From NCBI RefSeq assembly GCF_004138485.1, contig NZ_RYEV01000013.1, forward strand, positions 1-44,543: a DNA stretch of 44,543 nt. Direction: 5' to 3'. The notes beneath the pieces were generated by a model that was not told the origin of the DNA, searched no databases, and worked only from the letters and a program-made list of their open reading frames with translations. Within the stretch, counting starts at the first letter, position 1; the number at the start of each line of letters is the position of its first letter. Positions 11,020 through 37,617 of this stretch are shown here, in pieces. Source of the stretch: Peristeroidobacter soli (GTDB lineage Bacteria > Pseudomonadota > Gammaproteobacteria > Steroidobacterales > Steroidobacteraceae). Position numbers and translations under genes: made by a program.

Positions 11020-12561
11020 TCAGCACTCCGGGAGCACGACCTCCTGCACCTTTCTCTCGGGCTGCTCAACCAAGGCATTTAGATAGACGAGAAATGCCTG
11101 CGCGAGGCGTTCCATTGATTCAACAGTGAATTGGCCCAATGGGAACTGAAAGTTTCCAATCACTTCATCGTCGGCATCGTAGAGCAACATGACCGGCTCG
11201 TAATCCAGCTCCAACTGCTTCAATGTCGGATGGGTGAACCCTACAGATGATAGGCTGATCTCATCTGCCGACCCGGCCAGCCTCGACACATCAATCTTTG
11301 ACCCTTGCGGTACCCAGTTGAAAGTTGTGTTTCTCGTGAATCCCTCGACATCGTCTTTGGCAGATAAATATGAGAAGTCTGCGTGTTCGTATGCCTGACA
11401 GTACTCCTGAGTAACTCGATTCAATAGATCCACAAAGCTATCGGCTTCTAGCACAGATATTCTCAGGTACAGCACTGTCGCAAAGAACCCTATCGTGTCT
11501 TGCACGCTTGGGCTCACTCTCCCGTCGGATTGATACTGAACTACAGACTCTGACGTGCCACACCAGCGCATGACGAGTGCGACATACGCAGTAAATATGC
11601 TCATCACAAGAGTGGTCTTCCTAGTGCGGCTCCAGTCTCGCAACGCAGCCTTCAACCGTCGATTGATTGAAAAGTGCACCGTACCCCAGCCCGGCCGCGC
11701 TCTGCACTGCAACCCTCTACGGTTCGGGAATCTCTGTCGATGGCAACCGGCTAAGCGCTGAGTCCAATATGCTTCATGCTCTTCTTTCCACGCCTCAAGC
11801 CCCCTCCGTTGACACACGGCATAATCGGCGTACTGAAGTGGCATAGGGGGCAGGGAAATAGAGCCCTCGCCGATCGCTTGCACGTACGCTGCAAAAGTAT
11901 CCCGCAACAGAATGTTCATGGAGTACGCATCAGAAATCATGTGATCCATCACGACCACTATCACATGCTCGTCCTCAAGGATCTTTAGCAGCCTCATCTC
12001 GAACAGTGGGCCCACGGCTATGTCAATTGGCTCGAGGACCAACCGATCAATCGTTTCTTGAACCGCCATGTCACGAACGTCCTTCGATCGCCCTGTCCAA
12101 TCCTCAACCCGTACCTGACGGACTCCTTCACTAGACATTTCCTGGGTTGGCACGCCGTTGGCCACGACGATGACAGTTCGTAGTGCGTCGCTTCGGCGTA
12201 CAATCTCAGAAGCACTTCTCTTGAATAGCTCTACGTTGAAGTGTCCGACTACGCGCGTCGCGGATGCGATTTGCCGTATCGCCCGCCGCTCACTTAAGCG
12301 ATAGGCATGCCAATGAGCCAATTGGGCAAACGTCAAAGGGGCCCGCCGGACCTGCTCGTGCACCAGTACAGGGGCGCCTTCGCGCGGCTCTTCGAACGCC
12401 AAGAGAAGATCTATTACCGTCCTCTTAGATGCCCTTAGCCTGTCAATATCCTCCTGAGTGAGGGCTCCCACAGGCGCCTTGTAGCGGAGCTGATCTCCCT
12501 CCAGCCACAGTCTAACCCCCCTTTCACGGAGAGATGAAAGAACATCCGCAATATTATCCAT
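11020..12561 (-). CDS. Stand-alone NRPS condensation protein with TubC-type docking domain
   Basis: A 513-aa protein. Residues 1 to about 55 (DVLSSLRERGVRLWLEGDQL and ALTQEDIDRLRASKRTVIDL) match the TubC N-terminal docking fold, which recognises the C-terminus of a partner synthetase. The rest is one condensation domain with no adenylation, carrier or thioesterase domain. The active-site motif usually written HHxxxDG reads DHMISDA at 206-212: the second, catalytic His (H207) and the Asp (D211) are kept, while the first His is Asp. The gene follows NRPS3 after 219 non-coding bases and has AAGGA upstream. As the cluster has no thioesterase, this protein may release the chain onto a free amine or alcohol, or by ring closure. 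Alternatively it could acylate the first residue in trans, as NRPS1 lacks a complete first C domain. Confidence 0.85.
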   Translation of the reverse strand: MDNIADVLSSLRERGVRLWLEGDQLRYKAPVGALTQEDIDRLRASKRTVIDLLLAFEEPREGAPVLVHEQVRRAPLTFAQLAHWHAYRLSERRAIRQIASATRVVGHFNVELFKRSASEIVRRSDALRTVIVVANGVPTQEMSSEGVRQVRVEDWTGRSKDVRDMAVQETIDRLVLEPIDIAVGPLFEMRLLKILEDEHVIVVVMDHMISDAYSMNILLRDTFAAYVQAIGEGSISLPPMPLQYADYAVCQRRGLEAWKEEHEAYWTQRLAGCHRQRFPNRRGLQCRARPGWGTVHFSINRRLKAALRDWSRTRKTTLVMSIFTAYVALVMRWCGTSESVVQYQSDGRVSPSVQDTIGFFATVLYLRISVLEADSFVDLLNRVTQEYCQAYEHADFSYLSAKDDVEGFTRNTTFNWVPQGSKIDVSRLAGSADEISLSSVGFTHPTLKQLELDYEPVMLLYDADDEVIGNFQFPLGQFTVESMERLAQAFLVYLNALVEQPERKVQEVVLPEC

Positions 12562-12780
12562 GGCACTTTTATCCTTGCGCGGATTACCACCGCAGATCGT
12601 CCCTATCTCGCACGCGACCTCACCTCGACGTCCATGCTCTCAAACGGCAGTACCGGCAGACCTTCGATGAGACACTGCCTATACGGCAGCGGAAGTCGAG
12701 GCATCTCGTCTCGATGTCCACCCGAACGGATCCTTTAGGGATTTGCGACCGCAAATCGTCATCTCCGTTCGATTTCAACC

Positions 12781-15700
12781 CTATATTGTTCCCTCCTCGG
12801 ATTGCTCCGGGATACTGTCAAGTGGCCGCTGATCAGTCGCTCGGAGCGACTCAACTGCCCTCGCCATTCGAGCTATCGTGGGATGCTGGAACATCGCAAT
12901 ACCACTCAGTCGCACCGAGAAACGCGCGGATACTCGCGCAATCAGCCGCATACCGTGAAGCGAGTGGCCACCGAGTTCAAAGAAGTTATCGGCTCGCCCG
13001 ATGCGCTTCACACCGAGCAACTCCTGCCAAATTTCCGCCACGGCTTGCTCGATCTCGCCTTGGGGCGCTTCGTACGTCTCAACTGCGTAAGCTCCCATCT
13101 CTGGGATGGGCAGCGCTCGCCGATCCAGCTTCCCGCTTGGGGTAAGCGGCAAGCTTTCCAAAATCACAAATGCGCTTGGCACCATGTGCTCGGGCACCAA
13201 CGCTCTCAAGTGTGCGCGCAAATCCTCAACGCCCAGGCCAACCTCATCACGCCGCGTGACATATGCCACCAGTCGCTTCTCGCCTGGCACATCCTCGCGA
13301 ACAATGGCTGCCACCTCCTTCACCTGCGCATGCGTTGACAGCTGCGCCTCGATCTCGCCCAGCTCAATACGATATCCACGGATTTTTACCTGATCGTCGT
13401 TTCGCCCCAGATATTCCAATGTTCCATCGGCCCGCCACCGCCCCAGATCTCCGGTCCTGTACAGACGCCTTCCTGCATCGGCACTGAACGGGTCCGCGAT
13501 GAAGCGCTGCGCAGTCACCCCCGGACGCTTACAATACTCGCGCGCAACATTTGCCCCACCAATATAGATTTCTCCGGCTACGCCTATCGGCGCCGGCTGC
13601 CACCCTCCGTCGAGAATGTAGATCTGTGTGTTTGACAGAGGCCGTCCTATGCTCGGCAGAACCGGCCAATCATCGGGACTGCCCGCTAAGGTCAGTGCCG
13701 TGACCACATGTGATTCAGTCGGGCCATAGTGGTTATGCAGCCGACAGCCCCTAAGCCGCTTGAAGAAGTTTGATATCTCCGCACTTACGCGCAGCTGCTC
13801 CCCTGCTGTGATCACATCTTGCAGACTGGTTGGAACCGCGCCGCTATCCTTGAAGGACTCCGCCAAACTTTGTAGCATCAGCGGTGGCAGGAACAGCCTT
13901 TCAACCGACTGCTCGATCAGCAACTCCATCAACGCTCGAGCATCTCGACGTAACCACTCATCCAACAATACCAACGTATCGCCCATGCACAGCGTCGAGA
14001 AAATCTCCTGAAATGCCACATCAAAGCTGAGCGCAGAGAATTGCAGAACACGCTTCCCTTCAGTTGCCGAGAACACCCGACGATGCCATTCAATCAGATT
14101 GACCATCGCTGCATGCGTCATCGCCGTGCCCTTCGGCAGCCCCGTCGAACCGGAGGTGTAGATCACGTACACCCGGCTCTGCCAGTTCAATCCAAGCTCT
14201 GTCGCAGAGCTGGCTTTCTCGGTACACCTCGATATCGCCGCCCATCGCGTATCGAGCGTAATGACTGTCTCCTGCTCCGCCGGCAACTTTGACCTCAACC
14301 TCTCCTGCGTCAACACGACCTTCGGCGCCGCATCCTCCAGCATGTACTGCAGCCGCTCGGTGGGGTAGTTTGGGTCCAAAGGCGCATAGGCCCCTCCCGC
14401 CTTCAGCGTTCCCAACACAGCCACCACCATCTCGACACTGCGCTCGACGCATATCGCCACTAACTGATCCGGCCCTACCCCCAGCGCTCTTAGATAGCGC
14501 GCCAAGCAGCTCGCTCGCTCGCTCAGTTCGGCGTACGTCACGTGCTGCTGATCATGCAACACCGCAATCCTGTCCGGCGTGCGCCGGGCTTGCTCCTCGA
14601 ATTGCTCATGAATCAGAAGGCTCTGTGAGCAGGGCGCCGCTGTTTCGTTCCACTCCAACAGCCGTCGCTTCTCGGCATTTCCAAGCATTGCCAGCCGACT
14701 GATCGGTCGGCCGGGGTACGCTAGTATCTCTCCTAACAGAGTATTGAAATGCACAGCCATCCTTTCAATCGTCTCTCTGTCGAACAAATCCGTTGCGTAC
14801 TCAAATATTCCCAATAAGCCCTTGTTGGTTTCCGCCAAGTGCAACGTCAGATCGAAATGCGTGATTGCGCATTCTGGATCGGCCCACGTCCACGTCAACC
14901 CCGCCAACTCAAAGCGCTGCTCTGGATAGTTCTGCAACGCAAGCATTACCTGGAAGATGGGTTGGCGGCTCAGACTTCGATCAGGGCGCAGTTCCGCGAC
15001 GAGGGCCTCAAACGGCAGATCCTGATGCGCATACGCACTGAGCGTCACGTCTCTTACGCGCCCCAACAGCTGCAGAAACGTCGGATCTCCAGAAACATCC
15101 GTGCGCAGCACTAATGTATTCACAAAGAACCCAATCAGCCCTTCCACTTCCTTGTGACGCCGCCCGGCCACCGGCGTGCCTACGACAACATCGTGTTGTC
15201 CACTCCATCGCGACAACACTATTTGAAAGGCGGTCAGGACCACCATGAACAACGTGACCCGCTCACGTATCGCCAGGTCCTTGAGTGCTCGAGTGATAGC
15301 TGCAGAGACTTCAAACTTCAGCTCCGACCCTCGAAAGCTCTCAACTGCAGGCCTCGGACGATCTGTCGGTAGATCGAGTTCCGGTGGGGCTCCACTCAGC
15401 CTCTCCCGCCAATACTGTAGATGCTCCTCCAGCACTTCTCCCTGCAGCCATTGTCGCTGCCAGCGTGCATAATCGCGATAGTGCACTTTCGGTTCCGGCA
15501 AGGGAGAGGCTAAGTCGCTGCAATATGCTTCATATAACGCACCTAGTTCACGGAACAGGATCCCCCACGACCACCCATCGGTTACAACATGATGTAACGT
15601 GAGCAAGAGAACGTGCTCTCGCGCCGCCAACTTCAAGACACTGGCCCGCATCAAGGGACCCTTGGCCACATCAAAGCGACGCTCTGCTTCTTCACGAATC

Positions 15701-16137
15701 AACCGATCCAGTCCTGACTTTCTCTCCGGCTCCTTCAATTCCGTCAGATCGACTGCCTTCAATACGAAGGCCTCAGGAGCGCTAACCACTTGATATGGAT
15801 TTCCTCCGACCGATTCAAATCGCGTGCGCAAGCTCTCATGCCGACGAATCAGCTCGGATATGCTTCGCTCCAAGGCCGTGCCGTTCAGCTCACCCTGCAG
15901 CCTCATCGACATTAGAGCGTTATACGCCGAGCCGACCAAACCGAGCTGCTCCAAGAACCATAGCCGCTCCTGCGCATAGGAGAGCGGCGAAGGGCCACTA
16001 TGCTCGTATGGCACCAGCGGTGGCATTCGTGCCCGGCGTTTGCCTCCCACTGAACCTTTGTTTACGTCCGCCCTCCGAGTTACGCCCGGTTGATCGAGCC
16101 GATTCTGCGCCTGCATTTTACCGAGCGATTCCGTCAT
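12781..16137 (-). CDS. NRPS module C-A-T, predicted proline (third synthetase)
   Basis: A 1118-aa single-module nonribosomal peptide synthetase. After a basic leader of about 45 residues there is an LCL-type condensation domain with LSYAQERLWFLEQ and the intact HHVVTDG motif. The adenylation domain follows, with YTSGSTGLPKG, SALSFDVAFQEIF and YGPTESHVV, and then a carrier domain with FFELGGHS (Ser1059 carries phosphopantetheine). Aligned by eye to GrsA, the specificity residues are D-V-Q-F-I-A-H-V-V-K, a proline-type code. The acidic C-terminus (IPEQSEEGTI) could be the docking peptide for the TubC domain of the next protein. There is no epimerase, reductase or thioesterase. Its ATG overlaps the NRPS2 stop by 4 bases. 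The A-T part is nearly identical to that of NRPS2, but the C domain is not. Confidence 0.93.
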   Translation of the reverse strand: MTESLGKMQAQNRLDQPGVTRRADVNKGSVGGKRRARMPPLVPYEHSGPSPLSYAQERLWFLEQLGLVGSAYNALMSMRLQGELNGTALERSISELIRRHESLRTRFESVGGNPYQVVSAPEAFVLKAVDLTELKEPERKSGLDRLIREEAERRFDVAKGPLMRASVLKLAAREHVLLLTLHHVVTDGWSWGILFRELGALYEAYCSDLASPLPEPKVHYRDYARWQRQWLQGEVLEEHLQYWRERLSGAPPELDLPTDRPRPAVESFRGSELKFEVSAAITRALKDLAIRERVTLFMVVLTAFQIVLSRWSGQHDVVVGTPVAGRRHKEVEGLIGFFVNTLVLRTDVSGDPTFLQLLGRVRDVTLSAYAHQDLPFEALVAELRPDRSLSRQPIFQVMLALQNYPEQRFELAGLTWTWADPECAITHFDLTLHLAETNKGLLGIFEYATDLFDRETIERMAVHFNTLLGEILAYPGRPISRLAMLGNAEKRRLLEWNETAAPCSQSLLIHEQFEEQARRTPDRIAVLHDQQHVTYAELSERASCLARYLRALGVGPDQLVAICVERSVEMVVAVLGTLKAGGAYAPLDPNYPTERLQYMLEDAAPKVVLTQERLRSKLPAEQETVITLDTRWAAISRCTEKASSATELGLNWQSRVYVIYTSGSTGLPKGTAMTHAAMVNLIEWHRRVFSATEGKRVLQFSALSFDVAFQEIFSTLCMGDTLVLLDEWLRRDARALMELLIEQSVERLFLPPLMLQSLAESFKDSGAVPTSLQDVITAGEQLRVSAEISNFFKRLRGCRLHNHYGPTESHVVTALTLAGSPDDWPVLPSIGRPLSNTQIYILDGGWQPAPIGVAGEIYIGGANVAREYCKRPGVTAQRFIADPFSADAGRRLYRTGDLGRWRADGTLEYLGRNDDQVKIRGYRIELGEIEAQLSTHAQVKEVAAIVREDVPGEKRLVAYVTRRDEVGLGVEDLRAHLRALVPEHMVPSAFVILESLPLTPSGKLDRRALPIPEMGAYAVETYEAPQGEIEQAVAEIWQELLGVKRIGRADNFFELGGHSLHGMRLIARVSARFSVRLSGIAMFQHPTIARMARAVESLRATDQRPLDSIPEQSEEGTI
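12957..14627 (-). repeat. Near-identical A-T coding repeat, copy 1 (in NRPS3)
   Basis: Matches 16280-17950 at a constant offset of 3323 bases. The repeat encodes the protein from SLLIHEQFEEQARRTPDR before the adenylation domain to the GGHSL motif of the carrier domain. From about 14146 to 14627 I saw no mismatch, while scattered mismatches increase toward 12957. Flanking C-domain sequences are clearly different. Confidence 0.9.
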
Positions 16138-19100
16138 AGCGCCTCCGCCGATACGTCCACGCCAATCTCCTCCGCAATCCAGTCACTCATCCCTTCAATC
16201 GTCGGCCTCTCGAAGAGGACGTGAAGTGGAAGCTCAACATCGAAAAGGTGGCGGATGTGCGCAATCACACGAGTTCCGAGAAGCGAGTGGCCACCGAGTT
16301 CGAAGAAGTTATCCGCTCGTCCGATGCGCTCCACGCCCAGCAACTCCTGCCAAATTTCCGCCACCGCTTGCTCGATCTCTCCTTGGGGCGCTTCGTACGC
16401 CTCAAGTGCGTAAGCCCCCATTTCTGGGATGGGCAGCGCTCGCCGATCCAGCTTCCCGCTTGGGGTAAGCGGCAAGCTTTCCAAAATCACAAATGCGCTT
16501 GGCACCATGTGTTCGGGCACCAACGCTCTCAGGTGTGCGCGCAAATCCTCAACGCCCAGGCCTACCTCATCACGTCGCGTGACATACGCCACCAGTCGCT
16601 TCTCGCCTGGCACGTCCTCGCGAACAATGGCCGCCACCTCTCTCACCTGCGCATGCGTTGACAGCCGCGCTTCGATCTCACCCAGCTCAATGCGATATCC
16701 ACGGATTTTTACCTGATCATCGTTTCGCCCCAGATATTCCAATGTTCCATCCGCTCGCCACCGCCCCAGATCTCCGGTCCTGTACAGACGCCTTCCTGCA
16801 TCGGCACAGAACGGGTCGGCGATGAAACGCTGCGCAGTCAACGCCGGACGCTTAAAATACTCGCGCGCAACATTTGCCCCGCCAATATAGATCTCTCCGG
16901 CTACGCCTATCGGCGCTGGCTGCCAGCCTCCGTCGAGAATGTAGATCTGCGTGTTCGACAGAGGCCGCCCTATGCTCGGCAGTACCGGCCAATCATCGGG
17001 ACTACCCGATAAGGTCAGCGCCGTGACTACATGAGACTCAGTCGGCCCATAGTGGTTATGCAGCCGACAGCCCCTAAGCCGCTTGAAGAAGCTCGATATC
17101 TCTGCACTTACGCGCAGTTGCTCCCCTGCTGTGATCACATCTTGCAGACTGGTTGGAACCGCGCCGCTGTCCTTAAAGGACTCCGCCAAGCTTTGTAGCA
17201 TCAGCGGAGGCAGGAACAGCCTTTCAACCGACTGCTCGATCAGCAACTCCATCAACGCTCGAGCATCTCGACGCAACCACTCATCCAACAGTACCAACGT
17301 ATCGCCCATGCACAGCGTCGAGAAAATCTCCTGAAATGCCACATCAAAGCTAAGCGCAGAGAACTGCAGAACACGCTTCCCTTCAGCTGCCGAGAACACC
17401 CGACGATGCCATTCAATCAGATTCACCATCGCTGCATGCGTCATGGCCGTGCCCTTCGGCATCCCCGTCGAACCGGAGGTGTAGATCACGTACACCCGGC
17501 TCTGCCAGTTCAATCCAAGCTCTGTCGCAGAGCTGGCTTTCTCGGTACACCTCGATATCGCCGCCCATCGCGTATCGAGCGTAATGACTGTCTCCTGCTC
17601 CGCCGGCAACTTTGACCTCAACCTCTCCTGCGTCAACACGACCTTCGGCGCCGCATCCTCCAGCATGTACTGCAGCCGCTCGGTGGGGTAGTTTGGGTCC
17701 AAAGGCGCATAGGCCCCTCCCGCCTTCAGCGTTCCCAACACAGCCACCACCATCTCGACACTGCGCTCGACGCATATCGCCACTAACTGATCCGGCCCTA
17801 CCCCCAGCGCTCTTAGATAGCGCGCCAAGCAGCTCGCTCGCTCGCTCAGTTCGGCGTACGTCACGTGCTGCTGATCATGCAACACCGCAATCCTGTCCGG
17901 CGTGCGCCGGGCTTGCTCCTCGAATTGCTCATGAATCAGAAGGCTCTGTGGATGCTGGACCGTCAAACCATTGAACGAACTGACGACCCTGTGTCGCTCA
18001 TCCTTCGGTAAGATCGTCAAGTCGCCTATGCGTCCACCGGCCCCTCGGATCATCGACCGCAACAGCTCTCCGAAACAAGCCATCCAACGCTCAATGGTCG
18101 TTTGATCAAACAAGGCTACAGCGTAGTTCACATTAGCAACGATCTCGTCTCCTCGCTCCTCTAGCGATACAAACAAGTCAAACATCGCTGGCTCGTCCTC
18201 TCCGTCCTCCAACGTCAGCGTCAGACCCGCGAGATTGAGCTCTGCCTTGGGGGCGTTCTGCAGCGCCAACATTGTCTGGAAAATTGGATTCCGATTCCTA
18301 CTTCGCTCCGGCTGAAGCATCTCAACGATGCGCTCGAACGGAACATCCTGATTCTCATACGCCCCCAGAGTGACGGCCTTTACTTGTTCAAGGAATGCTT
18401 CGAGTTCAGAATCGGCCTGTACCGCCACTCGAAGCACGAGTGTGTTCACGAAGAATCCGATCAAACTCTCGAGCTCTGGACGTTGGCGATTGGCGATCGG
18501 CGTGCCAATGACAACATCTTCCTGATTGCTGATCCTGGATAGCAATATCGCCCACGCAGCGTATAACACCATGAAGACAGTCATCCTATGACGCTGCGCA
18601 AATGCGCGAACGTTCGAGCACGTCTCCGAATCGAAGACTATCCAAATGTTTCTACCCTCGAAGCTGTGCGTGGATGGCCGCCCCCTGTCCGTTGGAAGCT
18701 GCAACTCCGGTGCTGCGCCTTCCAACCGGCTCCGCCAATAGTTGAGCTGCCGAGCCAGTACCTCGCTGTGAAGCCACTGCCGCTGCCATTGTGCGTAGTC
18801 TGCATACTGGATGGGTAGTGCCTCGAGTGCGCTGTTGCGTCCTGCGCAGTGCGCCGCGTACAGCTCTCCCAGTTCCCGAAAGAAGACACCCATTGACCAC
18901 CCATCGGATATGATGTGATGCATCGTGATGAGCAACAGGTGCTCTTGATCACGTACTCTGAGCAAGCGGCCGCGAATCAGAGGTCCCGCGCTCAGATCAA
19001 ATTTCTCATGAACCTCCTCCCTCTTCTGCTTGTGCTCATGAGCGCTTCGTTCGGACGCATCGTAGCCACTCAGATCGATCTCTTTCAAATCGAAGCTGTG

Positions 19101-26495: not shown

Positions 26496-26538
26496 TGTGC
26501 TCCAACAAGCAGGGCGACGCGTTCCGATAGAGGAGGAG

Positions 26539-27324: not shown

Positions 27325-27425
27325 CCCTCCCAAGGGCCGGCTGGAGGCTGTGGATAAACGCTGGGCCGGCCTAGAATTTCCTTGGACACCATTTTGGGCC
27401 AAAGTAGTGGCTGGAGGAGTGTCCG

Positions 27426-28659: not shown

Positions 28660-28711
28660 GAGAATCGAATTACCTGCAACCGTGTGTCCAAGAAATCCTT
28701 GACCGCTTAAC

Positions 28712-28939: not shown

Positions 28940-30124
28940 CTATATTGTCAATAAATTGTGTGCACGCAGAGTTTCCTGCACTCGAGAGTGCGGGAGACAC
29001 GGAACGTAAAGACCATTCACGCCCTCTGCAGCGTCTGATGCCACCAGTGCATTGAGTATGGCTTCCTCTGTCGCGTCGATCGCCGCCTCGAACAGAGCTG
29101 TCAGTGCCAGATTAGGATGCATTCTGACATTGTATGGATCGATGCACGCGGGGGCCGGAAACTCGCCAACAACCTCACCCAGATCGGCATTCGCTGTCGA
29201 GAACGCAAGAAACAGGTCGCCAGAGAGTGTGGTACCAATGCCGCCAATTCTAGCCATACCTAGCGCCGGACGTTTCGCAAGCCGTCTGAGCTGATGTGGC
29301 AGCAAAGGTGCGTCAGTTGCAACAATGACAATGATAGAACCTTCAACGACACCCTTTGTACACCAGGATGCGTACCTCCGCTTCAGATCATCGGGAAGGA
29401 CTCCTGGATCAAGATAGCGAGGCATATCCCCTGTCAGAGCTTCCCCGATTCGAATGCCGGCGATGCGCAAGTGTCTCCGCGCGCCATAGTTCGATTGCAC
29501 CAGCACGCCCACGGTATAGCCCCCTTCTTTCTCCGGAAGTCGGCGTGACGACGTGCCTGTCCCTCCTTTGTATGCGTAACTGATCATACCCGCCCCACCG
29601 CCAACATTACCCTCCGCGATCGGACCGCCCCTGGCGCTGTCCAACGCCTCAAATACGTGTGCTGATTCAATGTGACCGCCGTCGATATCGTTGAAGAATC
29701 CGTCGAAGGTTTCCCCAACCATCGGGACCACGTACTCGATCAATCGGGGCCATCGTCTGGCACGCATCCATTGAATTGCCGCATCACGCACGAGCCCAAG
29801 GCTATGCGTGTTAGTGATCAACACTGGCCCTTCAAAGATGCCGCGCTCTTCTAGCCAGGTGAAGCCCGTGAACTCCCCGCCAGCGTTCAGAGCAAAGGAC
29901 CCACCTAGGCAAGGTCTCGCATCCAGACGGCCTCGAGGAAGGATCGCAGTCACGCCAGTTCGCACGGGGCCCTCACCCACTTTGAGGATTCCACTCCCCG
30001 ACCACAGCGTCGAATATCCAACCTCAACACCAGGAACGTCGGTAATTGCGTTCAGAGTTCCGGGTGTACCAGAAAAAGGTATGCCTAGCTCGCGAGCGCG
30101 CATTGGGGCAGCCATCACTGTCAT
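28940..30124 (-). CDS. P1-family (DmpA/BapA) N-terminal aminopeptidase
   Basis: A 394-aa Ntn-type hydrolase of MEROPS family P1/S58. The precursor cuts itself before a serine that becomes the N-terminal nucleophile, here Ser263 in EGSIIVIVATDAPLLP. SNYGARRHLRIAG and SGDLFLAFSTANADLGEVVG supply other conserved active-site segments. Characterised relatives are DmpA, which removes D-Ala, Gly or beta-Ala from peptide N-termini, and BapA, a beta-peptidyl aminopeptidase. No signal peptide is visible, so it probably acts in the cytoplasm. It starts 15 bases after the S9 peptidase gene and ends the uptake cassette. The match between its known substrates and the predicted beta-alanine start of the NRPS product suggests it removes that residue. 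Confidence 0.88.
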   Translation of the reverse strand: MTVMAAPMRARELGIPFSGTPGTLNAITDVPGVEVGYSTLWSGSGILKVGEGPVRTGVTAILPRGRLDARPCLGGSFALNAGGEFTGFTWLEERGIFEGPVLITNTHSLGLVRDAAIQWMRARRWPRLIEYVVPMVGETFDGFFNDIDGGHIESAHVFEALDSARGGPIAEGNVGGGAGMISYAYKGGTGTSSRRLPEKEGGYTVGVLVQSNYGARRHLRIAGIRIGEALTGDMPRYLDPGVLPDDLKRRYASWCTKGVVEGSIIVIVATDAPLLPHQLRRLAKRPALGMARIGGIGTTLSGDLFLAFSTANADLGEVVGEFPAPACIDPYNVRMHPNLALTALFEAAIDATEEAILNALVASDAAEGVNGLYVPCLPHSRVQETLRAHNLLTI

Positions 30125-30139: not shown

Positions 30140-32131
30140 TCATATGGGATTCAACGCTGGCATATGCTCTAGAAACCAAGCGACGACTCGTGCTGAGTAG
30201 TCCAGCAAGGCTGGAAACTTTCGTACTCCATGACCTTCCTCCGGATAGGTAACCAATACCGATCTGACGCGGTTCTCCAATAGGGCTCTATGGAACTGCG
30301 CAGCCTCCTCGGGTGGTGTACACCGATCCAACAAACCACAGACATTCAGCGTGGGCGTTTTCACTCGATTAGCATATATAATTGGGCTGCGGCGGAAGTA
30401 TTTTCCACCGGGGTTGTTGTACGAATCGGCTAAGAACAGGTCGACGAACTCTGGAATGTTCGAGAGCAATCGCTGCGTAACGTGATTGGTAGTGGGCGCC
30501 ACGGCTACTGCCGCGGCAAAGCACTGCCTTTGTGTGATCAGCCAAGCAGTCATGAAGCCACCATAGCTGATTCCCGTAACGCCCAACCGAGTGGGATCTG
30601 CGACCCCTGCCGCACAGAGATGATCCAGTCCCGACATATAGTCACATGTATCAGCCCCACCCATATCGCCAACCACATACCGGGCGAAGCGGTGACCACG
30701 ACCTGAGCTACCACGCGGATTCGGAAGAAAGACCGCAAAGCCGCGGTTGATTAACATCAGAATCCAGCACAGCCGACGCCCTAACCACGCTTGGCGCCAA
30801 TGCCACACCGGTCCGCCATGTATATTCATCACCATCGGAAACGGCCCCTTTCCTTGCGGTGTCAATAGCCAACCTTGAATCTGAAGACCCTCTGTCGATT
30901 GCCAGCTCACGGTCTCAATTGATCCGATCGTACTAACCTCCTTCGTATAGCCGTTATCGAATGACTTAACTCGCCGATACGTGCCATTGCAAATCAGTGC
31001 AATCTCCGGCGCGCGCGCAAACCCCTCGCCAACTAACACGCAGTCACCATTAGGATTCGTGCTCGCGACTGTGACATACACGCCGCCCGTCGAAATTTCG
31101 CAGCTGCGCCACACATCCCGGTACGCTCCGATTCGGGGATCAAAGTGGCCGACAACTGTTTCCAGTCCTCTATGACCCGCGAGTAACAAGCGCGTCTCGG
31201 AACACCATTCGAGATATGCGACATCGACATCGCCCGTCGGCACGTAACGACACTCACCCGTCTCAGAATCAATCAGTAGCAGCACTCCGGCGACCAGACC
31301 TCGGTCACTGCAAATCGCCTCTACGACGGCTACAGATCTTCCTGATGGCGAACATGCAGGGCACCCCAGTTGCTCCTTGGGGACGTACAGCGTTTTAACC
31401 TCGCCGCTCTGAACATCGATCAGGCTTAGCCGTGCGCTATACCATAGCCCCTCACTAGGGCCGTAGGACGTAACAGCTGTGAGGGTTCGATTCCCACACC
31501 ATACGGCCTCCCAAGTGTTGCATCCAACTGGGCTCACTCGACGCACACGATCGTTGTCTAGATCATAAACCCATGTACTGCGCCAGCGATTGTCACCAAC
31601 TCCATCATCAACGGTGGGCATCCACGAGAGACAGGATTCGGCATCCCGCTTGCTTGTAACCGCGCCGTTCACGCCGGAAACATCCGCGCCGTGACCAGCC
31701 ACGCCGAGTAGTATCTGCCGACCGTCGGGTGACCAGTGAAAGTACTCGACCCAACCATCCACAGAGGGAGCCGACAGCACGGTACGACTCGCGAGCCTGA
31801 TGAAATGAAGTTGGAAGTTTCCAATGCCATTGCGATCCGACAGGAAAGCGATCACCTGACCGTCCGGCGAACATTTCGGTAGTCGATCTGTGTGAGGCCC
31901 CAGGCTCAACAGCTGAGTCTCCGCCGAGCCCAGATCGATCTGGAAGATTCCAGTTCTTGGGAGGCCCTCCAACGTCCCCATCACGGCGCCTGCAAAAACA
32001 GCACTTTGCCCGCCCGGTACTACTTGAACTTCCCTTACGTCACAAATCTCCCCGCTTCCCGGCCTCCATATCTCGGTGTGCATTCGCTCGGCTTCTCGAT
32101 ACAAGGCCTCATAGGAAGGGTCATCTTCCAT
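30140..32131 (-). CDS. S9-family (prolyl oligopeptidase-type) serine peptidase
   Basis: A 663-aa protein with an N-terminal beta-propeller (about 30-400, repeats such as PKCSPDGQVIAFLSDRNG and YFHWSPDGRQILLGVAG) and a C-terminal alpha/beta-hydrolase. The triad is visible: Ser522 in GVTGISYGGFMTAW, Asp602 in CGLLDRCTPPEEA and His633 in PEEGHGVRKF; the oxyanion region is NIHGGPVWHW. S9 enzymes cut short peptides, often after proline or acyl-amino acids. No signal sequence is seen, so it is likely cytoplasmic. AAGGGGAG lies before the ATG. It lies 26 bases after the MFS gene. A role in cutting a Pro-Pro containing peptide is plausible; lasso-peptide isopeptidases belong to the same family, but no lasso genes are present. 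Confidence 0.88.
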   Translation of the reverse strand: MEDDPSYEALYREAERMHTEIWRPGSGEICDVREVQVVPGGQSAVFAGAVMGTLEGLPRTGIFQIDLGSAETQLLSLGPHTDRLPKCSPDGQVIAFLSDRNGIGNFQLHFIRLASRTVLSAPSVDGWVEYFHWSPDGRQILLGVAGHGADVSGVNGAVTSKRDAESCLSWMPTVDDGVGDNRWRSTWVYDLDNDRVRRVSPVGCNTWEAVWCGNRTLTAVTSYGPSEGLWYSARLSLIDVQSGEVKTLYVPKEQLGCPACSPSGRSVAVVEAICSDRGLVAGVLLLIDSETGECRYVPTGDVDVAYLEWCSETRLLLAGHRGLETVVGHFDPRIGAYRDVWRSCEISTGGVYVTVASTNPNGDCVLVGEGFARAPEIALICNGTYRRVKSFDNGYTKEVSTIGSIETVSWQSTEGLQIQGWLLTPQGKGPFPMVMNIHGGPVWHWRQAWLGRRLCWILMLINRGFAVFLPNPRGSSGRGHRFARYVVGDMGGADTCDYMSGLDHLCAAGVADPTRLGVTGISYGGFMTAWLITQRQCFAAAVAVAPTTNHVTQRLLSNIPEFVDLFLADSYNNPGGKYFRRSPIIYANRVKTPTLNVCGLLDRCTPPEEAAQFHRALLENRVRSVLVTYPEEGHGVRKFPALLDYSARVVAWFLEHMPALNPI

Positions 32132-32157
32132 CGTATCTCCCCTTGATCACCCGTCGC

Positions 32158-33546
32158 TCAATGGGTTCGTGCACGTTTCTTCAATGTCGTGGGTTCGTCC
32201 TGCGAGAAGGCAGCCGGCGCAAGATTCAGATCTTCGTTGATCGTTTCGCTGGCCTTCCACAAATGCCAAGCGCCCCACAGGTAGCCAGGGGATAAGGCCA
32301 GCAGCGCATATCGTAACGACTCCCCGCCAACGATCGGTTGAAAGGCATCGCTCAGCATCCCTGCTACTAGTGGCCCAAGCCCCATTCCTATTAGATTAGC
32401 GAACAGATATATCAGCGATATCGCCATCGCCCGCATGCGTTCTGGAATCAGCGTTTGGATGGTCGCGAAGAACGGTCCGTTGGCGGTAGTGATACCAATC
32501 GCGGAAATTCCCATCAACGTCAATGCTAGATAGAGGCTTTGTGATAGGTACATGCAGGTCGATAGAGCGCCGAAACCACAGTACACAACCGCCAAGGCTT
32601 TCAGTTGCAATGACTCATTGTGAGGCGCGTGGCGAGATGCGAGCTCTCCACCTAGCAATGTCCCCAGCAATCCACCACCACCCCAAATAATGGCGAACCA
32701 AGTTCCGAGTTCGCCCGTCTGCAGTCCATAGGTACGTACGAAGAATGCGGGTTGCCATTGCCAGATCCCGTACCCAAAGAAAGAGAGGACGGACCAACCC
32801 ACCAGCAGGTGACGGAAAGTCCGATTCGCCCAAAGGGTCATGCACACTGCACGCACGTTGGGATGCTGAGGCGATGTCCGTGTATCGAACATCTGTGACT
32901 GCAATGAATCAGCCGCGGGAGAACTACCGCACCGCGGTTCTCGCAACGTTGCCCACGAGAGCGCGGCGAGGAACAACCCAGGCATGCCAAGTATCATGAA
33001 CGTCGTCCGCCACCCGAACAGCTCGTTCATCCATCCCGCAAAGAAGAACCCCCCCACCATGCTCAAAGGAATTCCCAGCATGTAGATTGCAACCGCACGA
33101 GGGCGCTCCGCGCGGGAAAAATGATCAGCGATCAACGAATACGCAGGAGGAAAGCACCCCGCCTCTCCCACTGCCACACCCACGCGAATGCACATGAGCT
33201 GAATGAAGGTGCCGGCAGTTCCACATAGCGCCACCGTCACGCTCCAAAGAGCCGTGGTCGCTGCAATGATTGTTACCCGGTTTCCTCGATCCGCCCATCG
33301 CGCGATCGGTATGCCCATCACAGCGTAAAACAAAGCAAACGCTATCCCGCTCAGAAGACCAAGCTGCGTGTCACTCATCCCCAGATCATTCTTAATGTTC
33401 TGCAGTAGCAGCCCCAATGCAATCCGATCTAAGTAGTTGCACGCTAAGATTAGGACGAGAACGCAGAGCAGATAGTTCTTATATCGAAACATGCGCAACA
33501 CTACTCTCTGCCGTTCCTGCGGGCATCGAACATACCTAATACTCAC
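32158..33546 (-). CDS. MFS transporter, Spinster-like
   Basis: An integral membrane protein of 462 aa (444 if started at the ATG at 33492, MFRYKNYLLC) with about 12 hydrophobic segments. The stretch QLGLLSGIAFALFYAVMGIP followed by IARWADRGNR is the loop 2-3 signature of MFS transporters of the Spinster type. GEAGCFPPAYSLIADHFSRA is also typical. It sits between the amidohydrolase (142 bases away) and the S9 peptidase. In catabolic clusters, partners of TonB receptors of this kind carry the imported compound across the inner membrane. Export of the NRPS product is an alternative. Start uncertain. Confidence 0.85.
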   Translation of the reverse strand: MSIRYVRCPQERQRVVLRMFRYKNYLLCVLVLILACNYLDRIALGLLLQNIKNDLGMSDTQLGLLSGIAFALFYAVMGIPIARWADRGNRVTIIAATTALWSVTVALCGTAGTFIQLMCIRVGVAVGEAGCFPPAYSLIADHFSRAERPRAVAIYMLGIPLSMVGGFFFAGWMNELFGWRTTFMILGMPGLFLAALSWATLREPRCGSSPAADSLQSQMFDTRTSPQHPNVRAVCMTLWANRTFRHLLVGWSVLSFFGYGIWQWQPAFFVRTYGLQTGELGTWFAIIWGGGGLLGTLLGGELASRHAPHNESLQLKALAVVYCGFGALSTCMYLSQSLYLALTLMGISAIGITTANGPFFATIQTLIPERMRAMAISLIYLFANLIGMGLGPLVAGMLSDAFQPIVGGESLRYALLALSPGYLWGAWHLWKASETINEDLNLAPAAFSQDEPTTLKKRARTH

Positions 33547-33688
33547 TCGCGACAGATCACTGGATATCTCTAAAACGCCCCGATATCATTGGTTGTGCCA
33601 GGTAAGCGTGCCAGTCTCATGTAGAAGATTCAGAGTCTCTCATCGGCAGACACGTCACCTGCCGCTCATGATTCAACCATCGATCGGC

Positions 33689-35158
33689 TCAGCGCGGAAC
33701 GCACATCGGACACATTGGAAATCCACTTCGACCGATATGACGGTGAGCTCGATAGTCCAATACTTCCTCTGTCGGTGGGTCAAGAGGGCGCGTCAACACA
33801 GGGTTCGTCGGCAGTGAACTGCGGTCGACGACCACACCATCTTTGAGCACCATGTGGATGCTGCGGTAGTTTTCAGCCGACGTTAGAGGATTCCGGTCTA
33901 GAATGACCATGTCAGCGATCTTTCCCGGCTCCAGTGTTCCCAGATCCTTTTCTTTGCCGTAGGCAACAGCGATGTTGCGTGTCGCGGCGCGCAGTAGCTC
34001 CATTGCCGGGGTTCCTTTTTCCTCCATTGCCTTTAGCCAGACAAAGTGCCCCTGGTCGAGCGGGTTCAGATTGTCATCCCCGGGAGCGCTCCAGTATGTA
34101 CTGAGCAATGGATCAGCTGCCTGACTTGGCCCCCACTGCGTACCATCGTTGGCGAGCAACAGCATCGCTCCTGCGCGGAGAAGATTTCGACAGTTCACGT
34201 CTGACGTCGAGAAGTACGCACGATCAATCTCACAGTTTCCCATGATCCAATCGAATCGCTGTTGCGTGAATGGGAACACGACTGCCCCAGTTCTTCTTTC
34301 CACCATCAATTTGAGCGTCTCCTCCGGAATGGGGAATGGCCCTGTGATATTGCAGTGTTGAATGAGATCGCAGCCCGCTTCAACTGCTGCTCTCAATCCC
34401 TCTACGGAGGACGTATGGGCCTGCACCGTGACTCCCGAGCGATGAGCTTCCTCGACAATTGCGGCCTGCGCTCGAGGAGAAAACACAAGTGATGTCGTTG
34501 CGTCACCCCATCGATGTTCGTTGGCGGCATACTTTATGAAGTCGACCCCTTTTCCGATATACCTACGAATCTCCTTGGCAACTTGCTCAGGTGTCATCCA
34601 AGATAACGCGGGCCCCACATTCTCGGCGCATTGAGCGTTGATGTATTCGACTATGGTCTTGTCGAGTACCGGGGCGGCGTTTGGATTGAAGTCAAGGGAG
34701 AAGATTCCGTCAAGCCCGACAATCCAACCGGCGCAGAATATGCGGCTACCTACTAACTCGCCCGCGTTAATTCGCTCACGCACCGCAATGAGCGGTTTCC
34801 GGGCACCCATCGTGTCGAACACGGTGGTGAGTCCATTTTTTAGTGCAACTTGCGCCGCCTCGGCGACAACGTCTTGGGCCCGATCGTTATATCGAAGAAG
34901 ATCACCGAGAGGAAATATTCCAAGCCATAGATGAACATTTGCATTCATCAGACCGGGGATCAGGTATTTGTCTCGAGCATCGATAGTCTGCGTTCCCGGG
35001 GGTATCCTCAAGTTCTCGTACCGATCGATTGCCCGAATTCGATTCCCTTCGATCCAGACTGCGCAGCCTTGAATCGGACGATCTTCCACACCATCAATAA
35101 TAGTTGCACCGGAAATCAGGAGTGACGAACCGCTTCCAAGTGTAGTTGACAAGTGCAC
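33689..35158 (-). CDS. Amidohydrolase-superfamily enzyme (imidazolonepropionase/Xaa-Pro dipeptidase-like)
   Basis: A 489-aa protein starting at a GTG with GAGG upstream, 11 bases after the TonB-receptor stop. The N-terminal small beta domain (LLISGATIIDGVEDRPIQG) and the TIM-barrel metal ligands are visible: K209 (FIKYAANEH), H248 (TVQAHTSSVEG), H268 (DLIQHCN) and D338 (LLLANDGTQWG). The first metal motif, normally HxH, reads N74-V-H76 in PGLMNANVHLW, so one ligand is changed. Relatives include cytoplasmic hydrolases of Xaa-Pro dipeptides and of cyclic amides. In this cassette a dipeptidase acting on proline peptides is the attractive guess. The N for H swap may shift metal content or substrate. 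Confidence 0.78.
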   Translation of the reverse strand: MHLSTTLGSGSSLLISGATIIDGVEDRPIQGCAVWIEGNRIRAIDRYENLRIPPGTQTIDARDKYLIPGLMNANVHLWLGIFPLGDLLRYNDRAQDVVAEAAQVALKNGLTTVFDTMGARKPLIAVRERINAGELVGSRIFCAGWIVGLDGIFSLDFNPNAAPVLDKTIVEYINAQCAENVGPALSWMTPEQVAKEIRRYIGKGVDFIKYAANEHRWGDATTSLVFSPRAQAAIVEEAHRSGVTVQAHTSSVEGLRAAVEAGCDLIQHCNITGPFPIPEETLKLMVERRTGAVVFPFTQQRFDWIMGNCEIDRAYFSTSDVNCRNLLRAGAMLLLANDGTQWGPSQAADPLLSTYWSAPGDDNLNPLDQGHFVWLKAMEEKGTPAMELLRAATRNIAVAYGKEKDLGTLEPGKIADMVILDRNPLTSAENYRSIHMVLKDGVVVDRSSLPTNPVLTRPLDPPTEEVLDYRAHRHIGRSGFPMCPMCVPR

Positions 35159-35169
35159 AGCCCGCCTCG

Positions 35170-37617
35170 CTAGAAATCGTATCCGAGACGAACGCCAACG
35201 GTGCGCGGCCGAAGTCTGTAGCCACCGCCGATCCCACCGGCGTTAAGAGTCAATGCATCCTCGTTTGTCAAATTTCGAACGAAGAGGTCCAAAGTCAAAC
35301 TCGCGAACGTCATCCGTGCTGCAAGATCAACCTTCACATATCCGCCAGGCCCTTCCGCGGCGGCTACTTGTCTTGGAGCGACCGGAAAGGACTCGACATA
35401 TATGGTATCCGCGCGGAGCGAAGTGGCGTGACCAGCGAAATCTAGCGCGTATTGAAGACTAAGACTCCCGTTCACCTTCGGTGACCCTGGCAATGGATCA
35501 CCGGAGAACAGCCCCTGCGCTGGCACGTCCTCGGTTAGATGTGCGTCAATGTATGCCCCTCCAAGGTCCACTCGGAATGAATTCGTCAATTGAAATTGCG
35601 CCTGAACCTCGACGCCTTCTGAAAGAGCCGTGCCGCCATTTACGTCAAAGCCCCAATTACAGGCGGAGGGATTGATTGCTCGGGGATTGGAGTTGACCGG
35701 GATATCAGACCACTCCGTCCGAAAGACAGTCGCGTCTATCGTGAGGCGTCGGTCCAAGAGCGCAAACTTGCTACCCACCTCGTAGTTCTCGAGACTGTCT
35801 GAGTTAACAAATTTGGACGATTCGATCGTGATGGCGGTTCCATCGATAACTCCGTCACCATCGTGGTCGCACAAGGCAGAAGGTGCTACGGGTTGAGGCT
35901 TACCGAGACGAAACCCCTCGGCCCATCCGGCATATACCAGTGCACTTTCATTCGGTTTGTAGCTCAAGTTTCCGCGGAAGGTCGTGCCTGAGGCATCGAT
36001 GCCCCCCTTTTCCGATGCGCCGCCACCATGGATATCCCCTGTCGAGACACTCTGAATCTTGCGTTCATACTCATAGGCACGCACGCCCCCCGTCAGGGTA
36101 AATTTGGGTGAGAACTTCCAGGAGGCTTCACCAAACACTGCCGTCTGCGTCCGATCGCGCTGATCAAAGTACGTCCCCAGGTCTCGCGTTCCCGATGGGA
36201 AAAAATTGGTTGCTGGATCACCATGCCATAGCCAGTTGTATGAATAGTCGTCATAGACGTCCTCTGCGTAGAGCCCGACGAGGAAGTTCCACGCCCCGTC
36301 GAGTCGCGTCGCCAGACGGATCTCTCCTACGTTCTGGCGGTTATGACTCGTTGTCGAAAACGATACCGGCCAGGGCAGATTCAGGTAGGTCGCGGGGACG
36401 ATCACTGGCGCTCCCCCCTCAAGGTATGAATAGGTTCCCAGAAGGTCCGCCCAGCCCAGGTCATACTCCACCACTGCGTTTGCAATTTCGAGGTTCGAAT
36501 CGGCCAACCCGCCAGTCTGCCCACGGCGAACGTGTTCCGGTGCGACCTGCAGCAACTGCTGATCGAAGGCGACTCCATTCGAAGTTATCGGAAATCCATC
36601 CGTTTCAGTCTCCTGATTGAGGTAGCTGAAGGTGAACCGCAGCTTCTCGGTGGCTTGGAACAGCGCCGCCACGCGCGCACCCCAAACAAAGAACTGTCCA
36701 ACTTCCTTCTCATCGCGAGCGAACGCCTGCGCGCCATAAGGTATGACCGCAGCTGCTTGGAAAGCCGCATCAGAACCTGCGCGATTTCGATAATAGCCGC
36801 TGTCTTGATACTGATACGCGGTCGCGCGAATCGCCAGCTTGTCCGTGATGATGGGAAGATTGCCCACAGCCTGAATTTCGTAGTTGTCCCCACCAGTCCC
36901 TGAAGTGACCGAATAACCTGCCGCTACTTTGCCCTCAATTCGATCTAGCCTTGGGGCCACTGGAATAGTCCGTATGGCGCCGCCCATCGAAGAAGTACCA
37001 AAGGCGGTGCCTTGCGGCCCGCGCAATACCTCGACCCGTTCGATGTCTGCCAACTTCGTGTCCACGTTTGAACCACCCGTTACTCCCCCAGAGTTTGTGG
37101 TTGGCGTCTCCCCAAAGTACGTAGCGACCGTCGGCCCCGATCCATAGTTCTGGAACGAGGTAGTGTCGACAATTCCCCGGATAATGATTGCAGGCCCCCC
37201 AAAAGCACCGTTGGTTTGACTTACCGCGGGGATTCCCCGCAGGTAATCCTCCGCGTTGACGATGCCCCGCTCCTCGATGTCAACGGCTGTAACCACCGCA
37301 ACGCTCATTGGAACATTCTGTAGAAGCTCAGACCGCTTGGTCGCTGTTACAATAACCTCCTCTATGCTCCTGCGTTTGCGCTGACCATCAGTGGCGCCGC
37401 TCTCATTGGAAGTGCCGCTCACCACGTTTCCGCTCTCTTCCTCTTTCAGCATCACCAGCTTGAAGCTCGTTGTTTTGGCAACCGCCTGTCCACTGTTCTC
37501 ATCGACAACTGGTTCATGGTCGACATCCGGATTGCGAGTATTGTCAGCTGCCTTACCCAGTGTCGGAATCGCAAGACACACGGCGAGTGGTACTAGACCA
37601 CGATTAATAGTTTTCAT
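35170..37617 (-). CDS. TonB-dependent outer-membrane receptor
   Basis: An 815-aa precursor from the ATG at 37617, which has CGGAG 6 bases upstream; the longer frame to 37734 lacks this. Residues 1-24 are a signal peptide (MKTINRGLVPLAVCLAIPTL, then GKAA). After a 60-residue linker comes the TonB box region IEEVIVTATKR (85-95). The plug domain has AVVTAVDIEERGIVNAEDYL and DIERVEVLRGPQGTAFGTSS. The beta-barrel ends with RTVGVRLGYDF, the expected terminal aromatic residue. It imports a bulky nutrient across the outer membrane using the TonB system. No siderophore-type genes are nearby, so a peptide ligand is more likely here. First gene of the uptake and peptidase cassette. Confidence 0.92.
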   Translation of the reverse strand: MKTINRGLVPLAVCLAIPTLGKAADNTRNPDVDHEPVVDENSGQAVAKTTSFKLVMLKEEESGNVVSGTSNESGATDGQRKRRSIEEVIVTATKRSELLQNVPMSVAVVTAVDIEERGIVNAEDYLRGIPAVSQTNGAFGGPAIIIRGIVDTTSFQNYGSGPTVATYFGETPTTNSGGVTGGSNVDTKLADIERVEVLRGPQGTAFGTSSMGGAIRTIPVAPRLDRIEGKVAAGYSVTSGTGGDNYEIQAVGNLPIITDKLAIRATAYQYQDSGYYRNRAGSDAAFQAAAVIPYGAQAFARDEKEVGQFFVWGARVAALFQATEKLRFTFSYLNQETETDGFPITSNGVAFDQQLLQVAPEHVRRGQTGGLADSNLEIANAVVEYDLGWADLLGTYSYLEGGAPVIVPATYLNLPWPVSFSTTSHNRQNVGEIRLATRLDGAWNFLVGLYAEDVYDDYSYNWLWHGDPATNFFPSGTRDLGTYFDQRDRTQTAVFGEASWKFSPKFTLTGGVRAYEYERKIQSVSTGDIHGGGASEKGGIDASGTTFRGNLSYKPNESALVYAGWAEGFRLGKPQPVAPSALCDHDGDGVIDGTAITIESSKFVNSDSLENYEVGSKFALLDRRLTIDATVFRTEWSDIPVNSNPRAINPSACNWGFDVNGGTALSEGVEVQAQFQLTNSFRVDLGGAYIDAHLTEDVPAQGLFSGDPLPGSPKVNGSLSLQYALDFAGHATSLRADTIYVESFPVAPRQVAAAEGPGGYVKVDLAARMTFASLTLDLFVRNLTNEDALTLNAGGIGGGYRLRPRTVGVRLGYDF

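What the first reader, a model, noticed from the sequence alone, without database searches (positions are those of the whole stretch)
11020..37617. A make-and-take-back locus: synthesis operon paired with import and dedicated peptidases
On one strand, separated only by an IS, lie an NRPS operon for a putative beta-Ala/N-Me-Thr/Pro-Pro peptide and a cassette of TonB receptor, amidohydrolase, MFS transporter, S9 peptidase and P1 peptidase. Each hydrolase suits a bond in the predicted product: P1 enzymes remove N-terminal beta-Ala, S9 enzymes cut prolyl peptides, and the amidohydrolase group includes Xaa-Pro dipeptidases. A similar logic (TonB receptor plus S9 isopeptidase) is known for lasso peptides but, to my knowledge, not for an NRPS peptide of this kind. 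The IS lies between them, suggesting one ancestral unit later split.
Basis: inference. Interest (0 to 1): 0.85.

Follow-up and report, generated by a model that had tools for sequence, protein, structure and literature searches.

The report
Peptide factory with matching recycling genes
A soil bacterium's genes for building a small beta-alanine/proline peptide sit in one unit with genes that would import and dismantle such a peptide, and close relatives repeat the pattern with different enzymes, which suggests, though no experiment shows it, that the cell takes its own peptide back.

Summary
The minus strand carries panD and an NRPS (beta-Ala, Thr+methyltransferase, Pro, Pro by code), then, across a decayed IS3, P1, S9, MFS, amidohydrolase (AmH) and TonB-receptor genes. 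Its first A domain is also beta-Ala-type. In the genus, 6 of 6 Pro-coding NRPS loci away from contig ends have a TonB receptor and an S9, S15 or M24 peptidase within about 11 kb; like for like, 5 of 6 against 0 of 20 background stretches. Against: related hydrolase sets occur in genomes without condensation domains (4 of 8 tested) and once in this genome without NRPS; G010 has the oxygenase and NRPS but no close P1, S9 or AmH match. The parts are modular; that the cassette takes back its own product is likely but unproven. Closest known: lasso-peptide isopeptidase clusters, siderophore recycling.

The parts
35170..37734 (-). TonB-dependent receptor (plug + barrel); likely start at 37617
   Evidence: Pfam PF00593/PF07715; 51% to the receptor in the S. 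agaridevorans cluster
33689..35158 (-). amidohydrolase, molinate/phenylurea-hydrolase-like
   Evidence: PF01979; best PDB 4ub9/4wgx/4whb; 60% and 58% to NRPS-adjacent copies in G001 and G011
32158..33546 (-). MFS transporter, probable importer (direction inferred)
   Evidence: PF07690; 55% to the MFS in the TonB-MFS-M19-S15-AmH cassette of Sphingomonas sp. Y57, a genome with no PF00668 match
30140..32131 (-). S9-family serine peptidase, no signal peptide seen
   Evidence: PF00326; crude N-terminal hydropathy check; 56% to S9 in G001
28940..30124 (-). P1/S58 (DmpA/BapA-type) aminopeptidase, no signal peptide seen
   Evidence: PF03576; best PDB BapA 3n2w, E 4.1e-89; in a 33-row tree sister to P1 of Sphingosinicella microcystinivorans
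27371..28705 (+). decayed IS3-family element between cassette and biosynthesis genes
   Evidence: IS3 model pieces below its cut-off, PF01527/PF13276/PF13683, terminal inverted repeats and broken frame read by eye; ends approximate
26539..26916 (-). PanD, aspartate 1-decarboxylase, one of two panD in the genome: beta-alanine supply
   Evidence: TIGR00223 over cut-off; two matches of PF02261
19458..26606 (-). NRPS1: A(beta-Ala)-PCP-C-A(Thr)-MT-PCP, with an N-terminal stretch like the end of a C domain
   Evidence: Pfam; codes; N-terminal stretch by alignment to G001
16134..19454 (-). NRPS2: C-A(Pro)-PCP
   Evidence: Pfam; code DVQFIAHVVK
12781..16137 (-). NRPS3: C-A(Pro)-PCP
   Evidence: Pfam; code DVQFIAHVVK
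11020..12561 (-). stand-alone TubC_N docking domain + condensation domain, probable release/condensation step
   Evidence: PF18563 + PF00668; 41% to the gene in the same place in G001
9755..10933 (-). putative 2-oxoglutarate/Fe(II) oxygenase (conserved HxD...H motif), last gene of the biosynthesis row
   Evidence: no Pfam match and no credible PDB match; HSD, DDRIVH and GHIR invariant in 3 homologues; family call by recalled motif only
8558..9592 (+). family-2 glycosyltransferase kept beside the cluster
   Evidence: PF00535; homologues beside the G001 and G010 clusters
6473..7843 (-). DUF4185-like protein kept beside the cluster (Tat-type N terminus by eye)
   Evidence: PF13810 below cut-off; 58% homologue in the G001 cluster

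Best explanation
The region is one make-and-take-back unit. PanD makes beta-alanine; the NRPS builds a beta-Ala/N-methyl-Thr/Pro/Pro peptide; a stand-alone condensation domain releases it or adds an end group; an oxygenase modifies it; it is secreted. The TonB receptor and the MFS protein then carry it, or close relatives of it, back into the cytoplasm, where P1 removes beta-Ala, the S9 peptidase cuts at proline and the amidohydrolase opens another N-substituted amide bond. An IS3 copy later inserted between the two halves and decayed. Shown here: gene content, codes, collinearity with S. agaridevorans, recurrence in the genus. Inferred: secretion, direction of the MFS, substrates and cut sites of each hydrolase, what the peptide is for.
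For: Same order without a transposase ORF between in S. agaridevorans: AmH 60%, MFS 41%, S9 56%, C protein 41%, oxygenase 60%, TonB 51% (named). At the beta-Ala slot two non-homologous pairs could do matching jobs: P1 + PanD here, C45 (NF040521 161 bits, cut-off 85) + PLP decarboxylase there, with beta-Ala-type codes VDFITSIADK and VDFLTSQSDK. The C45 gene has a match at 1e-30 in 1 of 196 relatives, in this operon, and that genome has no P1 at 1e-30. In insects the isopenicillin-acyltransferase-like Tan removes beta-Ala added by NRPS-like Ebony, and Black makes the beta-Ala (PMC5085778, passages; the C45 label for Tan is recalled). 6 of 6 Pro-coding NRPS loci away from contig ends have a TonB receptor and an S9, S15 or M24 peptidase within about 11 kb. 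Like for like (TonB and S9/S15, both 500 bits or more) it is 5 of 6 against 0 of 20 background stretches, and for MFS of 600 bits or more 5 of 6 against 0 of 20. MFS homologues at 50% identity or more lie within 20 kb of an NRPS in 6 of 11 cases, against 1 of 30 below (Fisher p 0.0006; without the window 5 of 10, p 0.002). The 3 genus genomes with an amidohydrolase match at 1e-60 all have it beside an NRPS. No signal peptide seen on P1, S9, AmH by a crude test.
Against: No enzyme or product data. Related hydrolase sets occur in genomes with no condensation-domain match (4 of 8 tested, a fifth only below cut-off) and in this genome at C1:666-681 kb without NRPS, so the substrate may be foreign. 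G010 has the oxygenase and Pro-coding NRPS but no P1 (1e-30), S9 or AmH (1e-60) match (only the best few candidates per genome were scored), though its contig starts inside the NRPS. P1 is common (60 of 196 relatives) and none of 29 other P1 loci of about 4 kb showed an NRPS. G010 C26 codes show no Pro, yet S15 and DPP IV genes lie about 14 kb away. The one 'S15' protein tested is CocE/NonD-type, not a proven X-Pro enzyme. The window P1 groups with a Sphingosinicella P1, not with kin, and the MFS is only 41% like that of G001, so single parts may have come separately. The models were seeded from these clusters, which favours them over the background.
Confidence: 0.6

Rival explanations
1. The cassette is a general scavenging unit for foreign N-alkylated or prolyl peptides that happens to have been recruited next to NRPS genes; own product is at most one of many substrates.
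For: For G011 the same gene order TonB-MFS-M19-S15-AmH (66-71% for S15 and M19) in Sphingomonas sp. Y57, without any PF00668 match; S9, AmH and P1 homologues near an MlrC-like gene in S. microcystinivorans, also without PF00668; a cassette without NRPS in the same genome; a plasmid S9 gene (47%) beside MFS, dipeptidase and serine hydrolase genes in Variovorax.
Against: Repeated adjacency to NRPS in one genus and slot-by-slot matching of decarboxylase, beta-Ala code and candidate beta-Ala hydrolase are not expected from a general scavenger.
Confidence: 0.22
2. The cytosolic hydrolases protect the producer by destroying stray intracellular product, and the MFS protein is an exporter.
For: Hydrolases seem cytosolic by a crude test; co-location with the biosynthesis genes.
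Against: Does not explain the TonB receptor; a homologous MFS at 55% sits in a genome without PF00668, with no such product to export; G011 has a further MFS gene on the NRPS strand beside the C protein, a better exporter candidate (its role is inferred).
Confidence: 0.08
3. The hydrolases mature the product (prodrug-type trimming) before or during export.
For: Peptidases in NRPS clusters often mature products (recalled).
Against: Prodrug peptidases are usually periplasmic or membrane-bound (recalled), these show no signal; three hydrolases plus a receptor exceed a single trim; related sets stand alone in genomes without NRPS.
Confidence: 0.05
4. Chance neighbourhood in a genome rich in TonB receptors and peptidases.
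For: TonB receptors are frequent: 10 of 20 background stretches hold a match, and 3 of 20 hold TonB with S9/S15 at any score.
Against: Collinear row of genes in a second species; 0 of 20 background stretches hold the high-scoring combination against 5 of 6 NRPS loci; MFS adjacency 6 of 11 against 1 of 30.
Confidence: 0.05

Closest known systems
Lasso-peptide clusters with S9-type isopeptidase and TonB receptor (astexin, sphingopyxin, benenodin)
   Same: Producer cluster holds a TonB receptor and a prolyl-oligopeptidase-family hydrolase that opens the cognate product, with sigma/anti-sigma genes (PMC9266682, passages); G011 C10 has a FecR gene beside its TonB receptor.
   Different: Product here is nonribosomal; three hydrolases of three families; window S9 scores 68 against the isopeptidase cut-off of 400; no sigma or FecR family among the window ORFs scanned.
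NRPS siderophore systems with TonB receptor and hydrolase (enterobactin FepA/Fes type; recalled)
   Same: NRPS, outer-membrane receptor and cytosolic hydrolase in one locus; secreted compound is taken back and cut.
   Different: No catechol, hydroxamate or hydroxy-acid ligand is predicted by the codes; hydrolases are peptidases and an amidohydrolase, not an esterase.
Insect Ebony/Tan/Black beta-alanine cycle
   Same: NRPS-like beta-Ala activation, aspartate decarboxylase, and an isopenicillin-acyltransferase-like hydrolase that reverses it (PMC5085778, passages); the S. agaridevorans operon has an NRPS, a C45 and a PLP decarboxylase gene.
   Different: There a one-step amide on an amine; here a multi-module peptide; the window uses P1 and PanD instead.
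P1/S58 beta-aminopeptidases DmpA and BapA
   Same: Window P1 belongs to this family (best PDB BapA).
   Different: Lies beside a beta-Ala-type NRPS and a second panD, which points to a possible natural substrate.
Stand-alone peptide-catabolic loci of sphingomonads and actinomycetes
   Same: Same hydrolase families, in Sphingomonas sp. Y57 the same order as in G011.
   Different: No PF00668 match in 4 of 8 such genomes tested, one more only below cut-off.

Membership tests
Isopeptidase-containing lasso peptide cluster | lasso isopeptidase equivalog NF033523 | tested here: not met
   68.5 bits against cut-off 400
Isopeptidase-containing lasso peptide cluster | precursor, B and C lasso genes | not tested
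   no lasso maturation family among the window ORFs scanned, but no search for a small precursor was made
Siderophore NRPS with uptake and hydrolase | TonB receptor and hydrolase beside NRPS | tested here: met
Siderophore NRPS with uptake and hydrolase | iron-binding groups in the product | tested here: inconclusive
   codes read beta-Ala, Thr, Pro, Pro; oxygenase action and end group unknown
P1/S58 (DmpA/BapA) peptidase | PF03576 over its full length and the Ser at the chain-cleavage point (role of the Ser recalled) | tested here: met
   PF03576 349 bits, profile 1-304 of 307; Gly-Ser before the I/V-rich strand and TDAP, as in 31 of the 33 rows; BapA has Asn-Ser there
P1/S58 (DmpA/BapA) peptidase | activity on N-terminal beta-Ala | not testable with these tools
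   needs enzyme assay
Xaa-Pro dipeptidase (amidohydrolase type) | NF051886 cut-off | tested here: not met
   145.7 against 500; nearer molinate hydrolase
Microcystin mlr pathway | MlrC model NF041767 in the related Sphingosinicella locus | tested here: not met
   MlrC-like, 331 against cut-off 999
C45 hydrolase (isopenicillin acyltransferase kind) in S. agaridevorans | NF040521 cut-off | tested here: met
   161.2 against 85

The most novel reading that the evidence does not exclude
Steroidobacter keeps a class of revocable nonribosomal peptides: its Pro-coding NRPS loci are each paired with their own receptor, importer and a set of cytosolic hydrolases chosen residue by residue to match the product (beta-Ala cap with P1 or C45; Pro with S9, S15 or aminopeptidase-P-like enzymes), and beta-Ala-capped peptides of this kind are a natural substrate of beta-aminopeptidases.
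Probability: 0.4. Interest if true: 0.82.

Novelty: new variant of a known kind. Interest (0 to 1): 0.72.

Why it matters
If true, NRPS clusters outside siderophores can encode the full life cycle of a peptide, and the hydrolases give an independent readout of its structure. It would also give P1 beta-aminopeptidases, mostly studied on synthetic beta-peptides and carnosine (recalled; the carnosine work was seen in passages of PMC9235088), a natural substrate that can be tested directly.

Tried and rejected
Composite transposon carrying the cassette: rejected, because the second IS remnant (match 38846-39045) is only 73% like the first and the unit is collinear without a transposase ORF between in S. 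agaridevorans. In the own genome the IS stretch had 2 further matches, both partial.

Structure of the oxygenase: one AlphaFold2 job on the single sequence gave mean pLDDT 33, not used; the PDB profile search gave one chance-level row, E 0.57. The family call rests on the conserved HxD...H motif, which is recalled.

Wider spread of the oxygenase: 3 of 196 relatives, own genome included; 1 of 369 class genomes, the window's own. Rfam found nothing in the window. Plasmids: one distant amidohydrolase record and three S9 records.

Papers: ten searches in the held PMC library. Of the four aimed at an NRPS peptide with TonB uptake and dedicated peptidases, or at recycling, three returned nothing and one search listed two siderophore or drug-delivery reviews that I did not open. 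One search also returned nothing. Of PMC10681181, PMC9266682, PMC5085778 and PMC9235088 I saw passages only. This is not proof that no such report exists.

Limits: code extraction missed some A domains of the giant NRPSs in G010 C26 and G000 C4 (differ), so 'no Pro' for C26 is provisional. The background has no M24 or DPP IV model, its models were seeded from the clusters, and its 20 stretches were set by hand at round positions on four contigs of one genome, 20 kb each against NRPS regions of 30-120 kb. The 6-of-6 count leaves out Pro-coding loci at contig ends or on short contigs: G010 C1 and C25, and G004 C298 (13.4 kb, no TonB match); one of the six, G001 C9, has M24 and no S9/S15 match. 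The P1 tree holds 33 rows, not every P1 place. The signal-peptide check is a hydropathy scan without calibration; for the C45 and S15 proteins of the relatives the start was unsure, so I claim nothing for them.

Full report
What is there. The window is a whole 44.5 kb contig (C12) of a 9.37 Mb genome. Two named members of its genus group are Steroidobacter agaridevorans SA29-B (G001) and Peristeroidobacter agariperforans KA5-B (G011): one search names records whose lengths, 29,970 and 1,912,170 bases, and match places equal those of G001 C17 and G011 C10. On the minus strand lie panD, three NRPS genes, a TubC_N + C protein and a protein without a Pfam match. Upstream of an IS3 remnant lie TonB receptor, amidohydrolase, MFS, S9 and P1 genes. 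The A-domain codes read beta-Ala, Thr, Pro, Pro (code meanings and the anchor recalled), with a methyltransferase domain in the Thr module. The genome has two panD genes, one of them here.

Does the pair occur elsewhere? Yes. G001 contig C17 holds, on one strand, DUF1611, AmH (60% to the window), MFS (41%), S9 (56%), a C45 hydrolase, a PLP decarboxylase, an NRPS with three A domains, a C protein (41%) and the oxygenase-like gene (60%), then on the other strand homologues of the window genes at 6473 and 8558 and the TonB receptor (51%). From AmH to the oxygenase this is the window's order, with no transposase ORF between. G010 has the oxygenase-like gene and two Pro modules, the last fused to a reductase, at a contig edge, and no P1 match at 1e-30 or S9 or AmH match at 1e-60 (only the best few candidates of a genome were scored).

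The beta-alanine slot. In the window P1 and PanD flank the IS; in G001 the same two places hold a C45 hydrolase (NF040521 161, cut-off 85) and a PLP decarboxylase (MfnA model 219 under 299; best PDB hits sphingosine-1-phosphate lyases, then MfnA-type Tyr/Asp decarboxylases). The first A domains read VDFITSIADK and VDFLTSQSDK. The C45 gene has a match at 1e-30 in 1 of 196 relatives, here; P1 is absent from G001 at 1e-30. In insects Ebony (NRPS-like), Tan (isopenicillin-acyltransferase-like) and Black (aspartate decarboxylase) make and reverse beta-alanyl amides (PMC5085778, passages). I read this as two independent solutions for adding and removing the same cap; that is inference.

Recurrence in the genus. 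PF00668 occurs in 7 of 14 genus genomes. Six loci have a Pro code and do not run off a contig end: window, G001 C17, G001 C9, G011 C10, G011 C1, G000 C4. All six have a TonB receptor and a peptidase within about 11 kb: S9 in three, S15 by Pfam in two, one of them CocE/NonD-type by NCBIfam and the other not tested there, an M24 protein with creatinase/prolidase domains, aminopeptidase-P-like to my eye, in one. G011 C10 adds AmH, an M19 dipeptidase, MFS and FecR. Loci without a Pro code on long contigs: G000 C3 has none of these genes; G000 C9 has AmH-like and S10-like genes and no TonB match; G010 C26 has S15, MFS, DPP IV and TonB about 14 kb away. Background: of 20 stretches of 20 kb, 10 had a TonB match, none had a TonB and an S9/S15 match of 500 bits or more together, 3 had both at any score, and none had an MFS match of 600 bits or more; by those two cut-offs the six Pro loci give 5 of 6 and 5 of 6. 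The models were seeded from these clusters, which favours them. MFS homologues of 50% identity or more lie within 20 kb of an NRPS in 6 of 11 cases, those below in 1 of 30; three of the five others sit on contigs of 4-5.4 kb.

Cassettes without NRPS. The genome scan kept 80 of 81 loci for the amidohydrolase. Sphingomonas sp. Y57 has TonB-MFS-M19-S15-AmH, the order of G011. Sphingosinicella microcystinivorans has S9 (58% over 395 residues, cut by the locus end), AmH (54%) and P1 (64%) homologues in 21 kb with an MlrC-like gene. Of 8 genomes of such loci tested, 4 have no PF00668 match and a fifth only one below the cut-off; 3 have NRPSs. The window genome has S9 (57%), MFS (59%) and TonB genes on C1 without a PF00668 match on that contig. 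So the cassette can live without a producer, and its MFS is then more likely an importer.

How it probably works. P1, S9 and AmH show no signal peptide by a crude test, so import through TonB receptor and MFS to the cytoplasm fits. P1 would free beta-Ala, S9 would cut at Pro, and the amidohydrolase, nearest enzymes that split N-alkylated carbamate and urea bonds (their chemistry recalled), could open an N-methyl or prolyl amide. These substrate matches are inference from family. The S9 protein's nearest solved relatives are an S9 peptidase and acyl-peptide hydrolases, so a proline preference is not settled by sequence.

The IS. ORF pieces with stops, and terminal repeats read by eye, show an old IS3-type insertion between P1 and panD. 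With G001 uninterrupted, insertion into one unit is the simplest history.

Verdict. It is a new variant of the receptor-plus-hydrolase logic known from siderophores (recalled) and lasso peptides (PMC9266682, passages).

Noticed in passing
window 38278-39163: A second, more decayed IS3-like remnant (HTH_21 piece; 38846-39045 is 73% like the first IS) lies just upstream of the TonB receptor, on the other strand.
   Followed up: partly
window 39299-40450: A macrolide-type glycosyltransferase (MGT model 211 bits, cut-off 260) lies beyond that remnant; whether it belongs to the unit is unclear.
   Followed up: no
window 19458-26606, first ~250 aa of NRPS1; L043 11467-12777: NRPS1 starts with what looks like the C-terminal part of a condensation domain; in G001 the whole domain is present but its second active-site His reads as Arg by eye, as if a starter domain is being lost.
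   Followed up: partly
L045 6363-9260, L071 12531-16066, G001 C9, L188, L216: Dehydrogenase E1-type genes, with SDR or aldehyde dehydrogenase genes in some, recur beside several Steroidobacter NRPS loci or cassettes; role unknown.
   Followed up: no
L082-L086 (G000 C4, 1.16-1.26 Mb): A large NRPS region of the same genome with MFS, C69-like peptidase, GH116, S15-family and TonB receptor genes interleaved among the synthetases.
   Followed up: partly
L080 4682-16703 (G000 C9): A one-module NRPS plus C protein beside a tannase-like DUF6351 protein, two S10-like and two amidohydrolase-like genes, without a TonB match in 32 kb.
   Followed up: no
L153, L155, L144, L150 (Jiangella, Acrocarpospora, Actinomadura): Actinomycetes carry AmH with S9, S15, M19 or C45-like genes in short clusters, so the hydrolase set crosses phyla.
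   Followed up: no
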